A stretch of 41,936 bases of DNA from Deltaproteobacteria bacterium RIFCSPLOWO2_12_FULL_60_19 (lineage in GTDB: Bacteria; Desulfobacterota; Binatia; UBA9968). The notes beneath the pieces are model-generated. The model ran no database searches and was not told the origin of the DNA. It worked only from the letters and a program-made list of their open reading frames with translations. The stretch spans positions 1 through 41,936 of the forward strand of contig MGSS01000132.1 in the NCBI GenBank assembly GCA_001798595.1, given 5' to 3'. The number at the start of each line of letters is the position of its first letter. The stretch's first letter is position 1. Positions 1,711 through 25,744 of the stretch are shown here, in pieces. The position numbers were made by a program, and so were the translations under genes.

Positions 1711-2010
1711 AAAAAACTGATGGGAACCTCGGCTCCCAGGCCGGTCAGAAAGGTCCCAGCTACAAGGCGCGCGAATGCCCGCGAGCGGAGGCGTACTTTC
1801 CTGGTACGTTGACGCGAAGCGGGCCGAGCGCAACCATCACTACCGCCCGCCTGGGGGGTCCCTCGAAGGGCCTATGCGTGGGACGAGAAGGATCAAGCGT
1901 ACCTCACAGATACTCTCAGCTCTTCGGAGCAGCGTAACACCGACGTATCGCATCGGCCCGGAGAGAGATTCCCAGGCGGGCTGACGGTAGACGGGCCTTT
2001 ATGGCCGGGC
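1711..2010 (+). repeat. Dispersed repeat (family R2), copy 1, split by a nested structured element
   Basis: The stretch 1711-1834 aligns with 12820-12933: both have an A-run, a shared AAGG core, then CAAGGCGCGCGAA and CGGAGGCGTACT in the same order. The right end of the family (GGCAGATGGGCCTTT in copy 2) reappears here as GGTAGACGGGCCTTT at about 1986-2000. Between the two parts lies the structured element 1840-1990. The copy stops next to the ychF-like stop codon. No open frame in it looks coding. The family resembles non-autonomous MITE-like intergenic repeats seen in many environmental genomes; that resemblance is from memory. Confidence 0.7.
1840..1990 (+). repeat. Structured hairpin element (family S), copy A
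   Basis: The terminal arms pair: CTACCG at 1840-1845 with CGGTAG at 1985-1990, then GCCCGCCTGGG at 1845-1855 with CCCAGGCGGGC at 1971-1981, with a small TGA bulge. Inside, ATGCG pairs with CGCAT. The element is collinear with 23642-23787 and shares the blocks ATGCGTGGGACGAG, GTACCTC, GGAGCAGCGT and CGGCCCGGAGAGAGAT. Its inner hairpins are more decayed than those in copy B. It may be a MITE-like element, a structured RNA, or both. Confidence 0.75.
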
Positions 2011-2013
2011 TGG

Positions 2014-3045
2014 TCACACGTTGAAGCGGAAGTGGATAATATTGCCGTCCTGGACCAAGTAGTCCTTGCCTTCGAGGCGGAGCTTGCCCGCTTCGCGGCA
2101 CTTGGCCTCGCTGCCGTAGCGGATAAAATCGTCGTAGGCCACGACCTCGGCGCGGATAAAGCCGCGCTCGATGTCGCTGTGGATCTTCCCCGCAGCCTTG
2201 CGGGCGACGGTGCCGCGCGTGATCGTCCACGCCTTGACCTCGTCCTCACCGGTCGTAAAGAAGCTGATGAGATCGAGCAGCGCGTAGGAGGCGCGGATGA
2301 AGCGGTCGCGCGCCGCCTCCACGATTCCCAGCTCCCCCAAGAAAGCCTGCCGGTCCTTCTCGTCCAGCTGCGCGACCTCCATCTCGACCTTGGCCGAGAG
2401 GTAGAGACCGGGCAGCTTGAGTTTCTCCAGCTCCGCTTTGTAAGCGTCGGGGAGTTCTTTCCCCGCCCGCTCTTCCGCCACGTTGAACAGCGCGATCACC
2501 GGCTTGCGGCTCAAAAAGCCGAAGCCCGCAAGCAGCGCCTCTTCGTCGGCGCTGAAGCTCAAGCGTCTCAGGCTCTCTTCGCCTTCGAGCGTTTGCAGGC
2601 AGCGCGCGAGCACTTCCCCCTCGCGCTCCCTCCCCTTCTCCTTCTTGAGCCGCCCCAGGCGATTCTCCAGCACACCCAGGTCCGCGAGAATCATTTCGAT
2701 CAGCAGGCCGCGCAGCTCTTTGAGCGGCTCCGACGCGCCATCGAAGTCGCCGAGCACCAGCGCCATCGCATCGACGTCTTTCATTTGCGCGAGCAGGGCA
2801 GCGTTCGCCTTGAGCTTCTCCTTGCTCTGCGAGGCGGGAAAATCGGTAAAGCGGATCTCGGCATAGGTGGTTTTCTTCGGCTGGAAGATCGCCGCCAGAC
2901 GGTCGACGCGGGTGTCGGGCACTTTGGTCACGCCGAGGTGACTTTCCATCTTTTCACCCTGCCCCAGTTCGGCGTGAAGCCCCGTCAGGGCGTTAAAGAT
3001 CGTCGTCTTGCCGGAACCTTGATGTCCGATCAAACCTACTTTCAA
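2014..3045 (-). CDS. YchF/Obg-like P-loop NTPase (DUF933 family), divergent
   Basis: The 343-residue protein has a P-loop GHQGSGKTT at residues 7-15 and a C-terminal TGS-like domain. The tail has the YchF hallmark: ERGFIRAEVV, then GSEAK, KLRLEGKDYLVQDG and HFRFNV. The N-terminal G-domain departs from classical YchF, which has GxPNVGKST and a DxxG motif followed by a KGEGLGN stretch. Here the equivalent region reads TDFPASQSKEKLK and lacks the glycine. The start is TTG at 3045 with GGAG seven bases upstream; no ATG lies closer to the P-loop. YchF proteins bind ATP or GTP and associate with ribosomes. This is probably a paralogue of the housekeeping gene, so I give no symbol. Confidence 0.85.
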   Translation of the reverse strand: MKVGLIGHQGSGKTTIFNALTGLHAELGQGEKMESHLGVTKVPDTRVDRLAAIFQPKKTTYAEIRFTDFPASQSKEKLKANAALLAQMKDVDAMALVLGDFDGASEPLKELRGLLIEMILADLGVLENRLGRLKKEKGREREGEVLARCLQTLEGEESLRRLSFSADEEALLAGFGFLSRKPVIALFNVAEERAGKELPDAYKAELEKLKLPGLYLSAKVEMEVAQLDEKDRQAFLGELGIVEAARDRFIRASYALLDLISFFTTGEDEVKAWTITRGTVARKAAGKIHSDIERGFIRAEVVAYDDFIRYGSEAKCREAGKLRLEGKDYLVQDGNIIHFRFNV

Positions 3046-23641: not shown

Positions 23642-23787
23642 CCACCGCCCGCCTGGTGGTCTCTCGGAGGGCCGATGCGTGGGACGAGGAGTATCAACCG
23701 TACCTCCCGGTTACTCTTATCTCGTCGGAGCAGCGTGACATCGATGTATCGCGTCGGCCCGGAGAGAGATGGCCAGGCGGGCGGTGG
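23642..23787 (+). repeat. Structured hairpin element (family S), copy B, inside the TRAP operon
   Basis: The ends are perfect 15-bp inverted repeats: CCACCGCCCGCCTGG at 23642-23656 and CCAGGCGGGCGGTGG at 23773-23787. Inside, TCTCTC and GGGCCGATGCG pair with CGCGTCGGCCC and GAGAGA. GACGAG pairs with CTCGTC, GAGTA with TACTC, and AACCG with CGGTT around a TACCTCC loop. The whole thus folds into one long branched hairpin. It fills the gap between the binding-protein stop and the permease start. Confidence 0.8.
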
Positions 23788-23800
23788 CACCTAAAGCATC

Positions 23801-25744
23801 ATGCCGGATGAACTAGCCACGGAGGAAACCGCGCGCTCGCGCACCTTCAGGGGGCCGTTAGGCCGGAGCGCGGTTTTTTTTCTGATCGCGATCCCGGCCG
23901 TCGGCGTGCTCTTCTTGCTCGACCTGCCCCAACGGTTTGGCTGGCTGATCTTTCCCGAACAATCGGCGGGTCTTATCCTCGGCCTGGTGCTCTGCGCGAC
24001 ATTTCTCTTGATTCCCGCGACTCGACGGTCGCCCTACGACCGTGTGCCCTGGTATGACGCTCTGGCGGCGCTGGTGGGCCTCACCATCGGCCTCTATCTC
24101 TTTATTGTGTTTCCGAAGATCGCCAACACCATCGGGGAGATTAGCCTGGAGCGGGTGATCTTAGGCTGCTTCACAGTGCTGCTGCTGGCCGAAGCATGCC
24201 GCCGGCTGGTGGGTTTGCCCCTGGTCGTTATCGTCGGCTGTTTTGTCTTTTATGCCCTGTTTGCCGATTACTTCCCCGGCCAGCTCTATGGCCGCGCCTT
24301 GTCGGTCAGCCGCTTATCCACTTATTTGTTCCTCGATACCAACGGCATCCTCGGTTTTCCGATCAAGGTCGCAGCGACTACGGTTTTGGTCTTCGTCGTT
24401 TTCGGACAGACTCTTTACTCGACCGGCGGCGCGAGTTTTCTGAGCGACTTCGCCCTGGCAGCAGTGGGACGGTTTCGCGGCGGACCGGCGAAGATCGCGA
24501 TTGTCTCTTCGAGCCTGTTCGGGAATATCAGCGGCAGCGCCGTGGCAAACGTTGTGGTGGACGGAGCCTTCACGATTCCGATGATGAAAAAGGCGGGCTA
24601 TGCCACGCCGGTGGCCGCCGCCGTGGAGGCCGTTGCTTCCACCGGCGGACAGATCATGCCGCCGGTCATGGGGGCGGCCGCGTTCCTGATCGCCGAATAT
24701 CTCCAGATTCCCTATGCGAAGGTTGCGCTGGCGGCGCTCGTGCCGGCGATCCTCTACTACGTTGCGTTGTTCATCGAGGTCGATCTGTTGGCGGCGCGAG
24801 ATGGGATTCATGGCCTGCCCCGAGATCAGCGCCCCAGGCTGCTTCCGGTCCTGCGCGGTTCGGCGGCCTTTGTGGTTCCTCTCGCCGTTCTCATCGGTTG
24901 GATGTTTTTTCTTAGACGGCAGCCCGAAGAGGCCGGCCTCGTGGCGGTGCTCGCGGCGCTCGTTACGGGATTGCTCACGCCCGGAGTGAAGCTCGGCCTG
25001 CCCCAGCTCAAAGAGATATTGGTCACAACCGGCCGGGGCCTGCTCGATATCGTCGTCACCACAGGACTTGCCGGCGTAGTCATCGGTATCCTTCAGTTGA
25101 CGGGCCTTGGCTTCAGCTTGACCTTCATGCTGCTCACGGTCGGTCAAGCGAGCGCGATTATTCTCCTTGTGCTTACCGCCATCGTCAGCATCATTCTCGG
25201 CATGGGTCTGCCGACGACCGCGGTCTATATCCTTCTGGCGGTGCTGGTCGCTCCGGGGCTGGCGCAAATGGGAATCATGCCGCTGGCGGCTCATCTCTTC
25301 ATCTTCTATTTCGGCATGCTGAGCATGATTACTCCTCCGGTCTGTCTCGCCGCCTACGCCGCCGCTTCGATCGGCAAGACGGATCCCATGCGAACCGGCT
25401 GGGAGGCGATGCGCCTCTGCGCCATCGCTTATATCGTGCCGTTCCTGTTTGTCTTCTCGCCCGCGTTGCTCTTGATCGGCCCGTGGCATGAAGTGGCGCT
25501 GTCGAGCGTGACCGCCATCGCCGGCGCGGTACTTTTGGGAGTCGGGTTGGTGGGTTATCTGTTCCGCCCGATCGGCCCGGTCCTGCGGGTGCTATTCCTC
25601 GTTGCGGCGATCGGCCTGCTCGTTCCTATCGTGGATCGCGGCGCGCACGTGAGTTTGAGCTGGGCGAGCAATGGGATCGGGCTCGCGCTGGGAGTTGCGT
25701 TGGTGATTTCGGAACGCCGCGCGAGATCGCGCGCCGCGTGGTGA
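23801..25744 (+). CDS. TRAP transporter fused permease (DctQ-DctM type, TAXI group)
   Basis: The 647-residue protein has many hydrophobic segments. The DctM core includes FGNISGSAVANVVVDGAFTI, EAVASTGGQIMPPVMGAAAF, IILGMGLPTTAVYILL and MLSMITPPVCLAAYAAASIG, all typical of fused TAXI permeases. It imports an organic acid using a sodium or proton gradient with the TAXI binding protein encoded upstream. ATG 23801 has no good ribosome site: the bases just upstream belong to the edge of the structured element. Translation may therefore depend on that element or on coupling. Confidence 0.93.
   Translation: MPDELATEETARSRTFRGPLGRSAVFFLIAIPAVGVLFLLDLPQRFGWLIFPEQSAGLILGLVLCATFLLIPATRRSPYDRVPWYDALAALVGLTIGLYLFIVFPKIANTIGEISLERVILGCFTVLLLAEACRRLVGLPLVVIVGCFVFYALFADYFPGQLYGRALSVSRLSTYLFLDTNGILGFPIKVAATTVLVFVVFGQTLYSTGGASFLSDFALAAVGRFRGGPAKIAIVSSSLFGNISGSAVANVVVDGAFTIPMMKKAGYATPVAAAVEAVASTGGQIMPPVMGAAAFLIAEYLQIPYAKVALAALVPAILYYVALFIEVDLLAARDGIHGLPRDQRPRLLPVLRGSAAFVVPLAVLIGWMFFLRRQPEEAGLVAVLAALVTGLLTPGVKLGLPQLKEILVTTGRGLLDIVVTTGLAGVVIGILQLTGLGFSLTFMLLTVGQASAIILLVLTAIVSIILGMGLPTTAVYILLAVLVAPGLAQMGIMPLAAHLFIFYFGMLSMITPPVCLAAYAAASIGKTDPMRTGWEAMRLCAIAYIVPFLFVFSPALLLIGPWHEVALSSVTAIAGAVLLGVGLVGYLFRPIGPVLRVLFLVAAIGLLVPIVDRGAHVSLSWASNGIGLALGVALVISERRARSRAAW

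What the first reader, a model, noticed from the sequence alone, without database searches (positions are those of the whole stretch)
23642..23787. Two-copy structured 146-151-nt element with long terminal inverted repeats
Copy B has perfect 15-bp terminal inverted repeats and several nested stems that together would fold into one branched hairpin. Copy A (1840-1990) is collinear, keeps the outer stem in a changed but still paired form, and shares single-stranded blocks (GTACCTC, GGAGCAGCGT). Retained pairing plus conserved loop-like blocks suggests selection on RNA or DNA structure, beyond a simple MITE. I know no named family with these motifs.
Basis: partly seen in the sequence, partly recalled or inferred. 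Interest (0 to 1): 0.75.

Follow-up and report, generated by a model that had tools for sequence, protein, structure and literature searches.

The report
A spreading hairpin repeat in bacteria
The 146-base hairpin is one of about 57 scattered copies of a small mobile DNA repeat that cannot move by itself, and its paired shape is preserved for one strand and in the lineages that spread rather than in each resting copy, so the shape looks like part of how it multiplies.

Summary
Copy B (23642-23787) has perfect 15-bp terminal inverted repeats and folds at -95 kcal/mol (z -8); copy A (1842-1981) is collinear. It is not a two-copy element: the genome has 57 full-length copies plus at least 15 with a replaced interior. 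Relatives occur in 11 of 35 genomes of the order; none were found beyond it in the sets searched. Rfam has no match. The arms covary strongly across genera (15 of 30 pairs changed on both sides; 92% paired against 30-48% for slid controls).

It is mobile: both window copies are absent from orthologous sites in relatives, and other empty sites exist. About half the copies sit in a TIR-bearing MITE shell that lands just behind stop codons; others stand alone.

Most informative: private mutations fall evenly on paired and unpaired columns (p = 1.0), whereas shared variants avoid paired columns (p = 2e-6) and favour G-U over A-C. So single-strand structure appears to be kept in the propagating lineage, not in each resident copy. 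The enzyme is unknown: reverse transcriptase is absent from several copy-rich draft genomes, and Y1 transposase genes have unrelated flanks. It works like a REPIN or ERIC/NEMIS repeat but fails the REPIN membership tests.

The parts
23642..23787 (+). Copy B: complete core hairpin, shell not recognisable, between two genes of one operon
23642..23679 (+). 5' arm of copy B, including unpaired GGA of the 3x3 internal loop (23666-23668)
23680..23749 (+). Head domain of copy B, conserved blocks GTGGGACGAG, CAANCGTA, GCAGCG, GTATCGC
23750..23787 (+). 3' arm of copy B, including GGA (23761-23763) opposite the 5' GGA
1842..1981 (+). Copy A: core hairpin
1737..2012 (+). MITE-like shell with TIRs around copy A; right end 1 nt from the ychF stop codon
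22559..23629 (+). NMT1/TAXI-like periplasmic binding protein gene upstream of copy B
23801..25744 (+). DctM-type TRAP transporter permease gene downstream of copy B
2014..3045 (-). ychF-like GTPase gene whose stop codon abuts the shell of copy A

Best explanation
This is a non-autonomous mobile palindromic repeat: a stem of about 30 bp with a conserved asymmetric head of about 60-75 nt. It has spread to 57 full-length copies in this genome and to several related genera. Shown: high copy number, empty orthologous sites, occurrence inside a TIR-bearing MITE shell and also without a recognisable shell, and compensated pairing that tolerates G-U more than A-C. Also shown: this constraint is visible in variants shared between copies but not in private mutations. 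Inferred: the folded single strand (ssDNA or RNA, in the + orientation given here) is what an unidentified trans-acting enzyme recognises during spreading, so selection keeps the structure in the active lineages while each inserted copy then drifts. Also inferred: copies inside operons, such as copy B, are transcribed as a long hairpin that could incidentally alter mRNA processing or segmental stability.
For: 57 full-length copies. Covariation of the arms: 92.2% cells paired, 15 pairs changed on both sides against 7.6 in shuffles, slid controls 30-48%. In 54 own copies one-sided departures are GU 46, AC 11, other 24, and 33 of 34 two-sided cells stay paired. Private variants uniform over paired and unpaired columns (p = 1.0), shared ones depleted in paired columns (p = 2e-6), spectra differ with Fisher p = 0.003. 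Empty sites: no core at ychF in 15 family genomes or at the copy B operon in relatives; L178 against L209 and L153 against L207. Shell without core and core without shell.
Against: No autonomous partner with the same ends was found in the listed sites, and target-site duplications were not demonstrated. Eleven private haplotypes are doubly compensated, which fits in-place selection or arm-to-arm templated repair. Shared variants are not fully independent events. Two insertions are shared between species, so some copies are old and kept. ssDNA and RNA cannot be told apart.
Confidence: 0.65

Rival explanations
1. Resident functional RNA: many copies act as cis mRNA hairpins (processing site, 3'-end stabiliser, attenuator) or as small RNAs, and the structure is kept by selection on host fitness.
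For: Strand-specific covariation across genera; position just behind stop codons or between operon genes; one insertion behind a fabI-like gene shared by two genera; doubly compensated private haplotypes.
Against: Private mutations ignore the paired columns. Both window copies are lineage-specific. At both shared sites the head differs between the two genomes. No fixed gene partner.
Confidence: 0.2
2. REPIN-like element moved as ssDNA by the Y1 (RAYT/TIRYT) transposases of these bacteria.
For: Same logic as REPINs: long hairpin, compensatory changes, element-level selection (PMC3116915). Y1_Tnp genes in 34 of 35 genomes of the order.
Against: Y1 genes are as common in genomes without the element. 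None of 21 Y1 genes checked is flanked by core or shell; many have their own GGGGTCAGGYCTTG-type inverted repeats. No GTAG tag at the hairpin base.
Confidence: 0.1
3. Plain decaying MITE: palindromy is only a by-product of TIRs and of quasi-palindrome correction during replication, with no selection on a single strand.
For: Arm-to-arm correction would also give compensated changes; doubly compensated private haplotypes exist.
Against: It predicts no difference between GU and AC, but shared variants are 14:2 (p = 0.004) and cells 46:11. Wobble pairs persist across genera (columns 16-130 and 17-129). The unpaired head is also conserved across subfamilies with different stems.
Confidence: 0.15

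Closest known systems
REPINs / REP doublets with RAYT (PMC3116915, PMC3733652)
   Same: High-copy extragenic long hairpin, compensatory changes on both arms, selection at the level of the element
   Different: No GTAG tag, no REP-type short palindrome in each arm found, no adjacent RAYT, conserved unpaired head, often nested in a TIR shell
ERIC, NEMIS/Correia, RUP and related bacterial MITEs (PMC2229807)
   Same: About 100-200 bp, non-coding, intergenic, transcripts predicted to form long stem-loops, filled and empty sites
   Different: Occurs nested in a second TIR element; conserved head across different stems; different bacterial group; direct sequence homology was not tested
IS110 bridge RNAs (PMC11208160)
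   Same: Structured RNA of a mobile element with covarying stems (abstract only)
   Different: No recombinase gene adjacent at the loci examined; conserved rather than variable loop blocks; relationship not tested

Membership tests
MITE (non-autonomous TIR element) | Short, non-coding, interspersed, multi-copy | tested here: met
   57 full-length copies of about 139 nt on many contigs
MITE (non-autonomous TIR element) | Terminal inverted repeats | tested here: met
   Core arms and separate shell TIRs
MITE (non-autonomous TIR element) | Filled and empty orthologous sites | tested here: met
MITE (non-autonomous TIR element) | Target-site duplication | tested here: inconclusive
   Not evident in flanks printed for shells; boundaries uncertain
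MITE (non-autonomous TIR element) | Autonomous relative with the same ends | tested here: inconclusive
   No transposase-sized TIR pair among the listed sites; lists were truncated and the genome is a draft
REPIN / RAYT system | GTAG tag at the hairpin base | tested here: not met
   Hairpin flanks of 30 copies carry no 5' GTAG
REPIN / RAYT system | Association with a RAYT gene flanked by the repeat | tested here: not met
   21 Y1 genes in 8 genomes, none flanked by core or shell
Known Rfam RNA family | Match above the gathering score | tested here: not met
   (only an unrelated TPP riboswitch in L057)
Reverse-transcriptase-driven element | Reverse transcriptase in genomes that carry it | tested here: not met
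   RVT_1 not found in copy-rich G018, G022, G012, G002; these are 78-87% complete
ERIC / NEMIS / RUP | Sequence homology to those families | not tested
   No reference set was aligned

The most novel reading that the evidence does not exclude
The conserved head is a true RNA module (ribozyme or protein-bound RNA) that drives dispersal through a folded RNA or ssDNA recognised by an unknown enzyme. It would be a bacterial mobile repeat whose fold itself is the unit of selfish selection, carried in several different outer stems and vehicles.
Probability: 0.15. Interest if true: 0.85.

Novelty: new variant of a known kind. Interest (0 to 1): 0.52.

Why it matters
High-copy palindromic repeats are common in bacteria, but it is rarely clear whether their conserved fold serves the host or the element. 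Here the spectrum of shared against private variants separates the two and points to the element. If that holds, the same test could be run on ERIC, NEMIS, BOX and similar families. The family also offers a defined single-stranded ligand (arms plus conserved head) with which to look for the missing enzyme.

Tried and rejected
Known RNA family: Rfam at gathering and lax thresholds on the window, and at gathering on ten diverged loci; no match to the element. Retro-mobility: RVT_1 not found in several copy-rich genomes. RAYT: Y1 genes are ubiquitous with unrelated flanks. Phage or plasmid origin: no match. Broad RNA class: a 395-genome phylum sample gave only two genomes, both of one family, and the GTDB pattern scan gave only 'Deltaproteobacteria bacterium' MAGs. 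Intrinsic terminator: judged by eye, the 3' flanks lack a consistent U-run; no terminator scan was run. Secondary structure of the head: several registers were tried and none held across subfamilies, so only the arms are claimed. The exact taxon of the window was not determined.

Full report
What is there. Copy B (23642-23787) is an almost perfect palindrome around an asymmetric interior: arms of 38 nt, 82% complementary, 70 nt apart. As + strand RNA it folds to -95.4 kcal/mol (z -8.1); the minus strand folds to -81.6. Copy A's core is 1842-1981; its stretch folds to -67 (z -3.1).

It is a high-copy family. A search of the window's own genome gave 40 scored near-full-length matches, from 100% (copy B itself) down to 81% identity. 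A covariance model gave more, and 57 full-length copies were fetched and scored. At least 15 further copies keep the arms but carry an unrelated TCTCAAATCTCAGATCT-type interior.

Relatives. A second model (R2), built from 27 diverse sequences, finds the element in 11 of 35 genomes of the same order, in 7 of 15 genera. In a 395-genome sample of the phylum it appears only in this genome and one family member. A GTDB-wide scan with an exact head motif returned 24 loci, all from 'Deltaproteobacteria bacterium' MAGs. It was not found in viral contigs, phages or plasmids. The exact taxon of the window was not determined.

Structure. On the 27-sequence alignment the arms give 30 pairs: 92.2% of cells paired, 15 pairs changed on both sides (shuffles 7.6), covariation score 0.270 (shuffles 0.145). 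Slid controls reach 30-48% paired. Column 7-139 shows all four Watson-Crick pair types. A symmetric 3x3 internal loop (GGA/GAA/GAG opposite GGA/UGA/GAA) is kept. The head keeps blocks such as GAUGC, NCGNGNAG, CAAGCGUA, AGCGUA and UAUYGCAUC across at least four subfamilies with different outer stems and lengths of about 110-140 nt. I do not claim a secondary structure for the head.

Which strand, and at what level. In 54 own-genome copies, one-sided departures from Watson-Crick consensus pairs are GU 46, AC 11 and other mismatches 24; of 34 two-sided cells, 33 are still paired. A duplex-level constraint would treat GU and AC alike, so the constraint is on one single strand. Counted as distinct shared variants over three subfamilies the bias is 14:2 (p = 0.004); among private ones it is 13:11. 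Private base variants are spread evenly (30 in 60 paired columns, 37 in 76 unpaired, p = 1.0), whereas shared variants avoid paired columns (29 against 95, p = 2e-6). The two spectra differ (Fisher p = 0.003 in the main subfamily, 0.0005 pooled). The simplest reading is that structure is required in lineages that spread, and that resident copies then drift. Caveats: shared variants are not all independent events, and eleven private haplotypes are doubly compensated, which suggests some arm-to-arm templated repair or in-place selection.

Vehicle. About half of the copies (28 of 54) keep a recognisable 3' flank of a TIR-bearing shell. The shell also exists alone as a unit of about 127 bp (CAGGCCGGTCAAAAAGGTCC...GGCCTTTTTCAGCGGCCTG). 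Its TIR pattern has 131 sites in this genome against 8 for the reversed control, and it is also enriched in some genomes without the core. In composites the core lies between GAGCGCAAC and GCAGATGGGCC, in one orientation. The shell's right end tends to abut stop codons (TAG directly before it in 15 of 90). Of 46 own copies with both neighbours called, 31 have a convergent gene downstream, most ending 22-60 nt from the core (genes were called by a simple script). Copy A shows this: the ychF stop codon is 1 nt from the shell end.

Mobility. No ychF locus examined in 14 family genomes (64-83% identity), nor a partial gene in a fifteenth, carries the core. The binding-protein locus of copy B also lacks it in the relatives examined, including one at 85% identity with a different spacer. 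One relative (L248) has a shell-like end right at its own ychF stop. Further empty sites are L178 against L209 and L153 against L207; in L207 a simple shell and a shell-less core lie about 36 nt apart. Two insertions are shared between species: one behind a fabI-like gene (86% identity) in two genera, and one at L058/L195. At both, one genome carries the head and the other the swapped interior, which implies exchange between dispersed copies.

Enzyme. Y1 transposase genes are in 34 of 35 genomes of the order, irrespective of the element. The 21 examined are not flanked by core or shell, and many have their own GGGGTCAGGYCTTG-type inverted repeats. RVT_1 was not found in several copy-rich, though incomplete, genomes. 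The enzyme remains unknown.

Possible effect on the host. Copy B lies 12 nt behind the binding-protein stop codon and 13 nt before the permease start codon, so it would be transcribed as a hairpin between two cistrons. By analogy with NEMIS (RNase III substrates) and ERIC, reviewed in PMC2229807, it may alter segmental mRNA stability. This was not tested.

Comparison. In working principle it is nearest to REPINs (PMC3116915), which are also long hairpins with compensatory changes and element-level selection. It fails the REPIN tests of GTAG tag and adjacent RAYT. It resembles ERIC/NEMIS/RUP-type MITEs in size and fold, but is often nested in a second TIR element and has a conserved head. I file it as a new variant of a known kind.

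Noticed in passing
1737-2012; also L031, L032, L040, L046 and others: A 127-bp MITE-like shell (TIR CAGGCCGNTNAAAAAG) is a family of its own, with ends that often abut stop codons; it occurs with and without the hairpin core.
   Followed up: partly
L081-L083, L085-L095, L097, L195, L196: Copies whose arms are kept but whose head is replaced by a TCTCAAATCTCAGATCT-type palindrome; found in two genera.
   Followed up: partly
L171, L174-L194: Mosaics of several palindromic modules (for example GTTCGCTCGGGGACTTACCTCGCTCCCCGAAAGCAATA) around the core; several copies keep the shell ends.
   Followed up: no
L269-L287: Y1 transposase genes of this order often flanked by GGGGTCAGGYCTTG-type inverted repeats, TIRYT-like.
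   Followed up: no
L057:1340-1456: A TPP riboswitch (RF00059) lies directly beside the only core copy found in genome G025.
   Followed up: no
L072, L097, L100, L113, L195: A further repeat (GGTGGTTCGACNAGCTCACCACCCTGAGG...CGAAGGG) is inserted next to or inside several copies.
   Followed up: no
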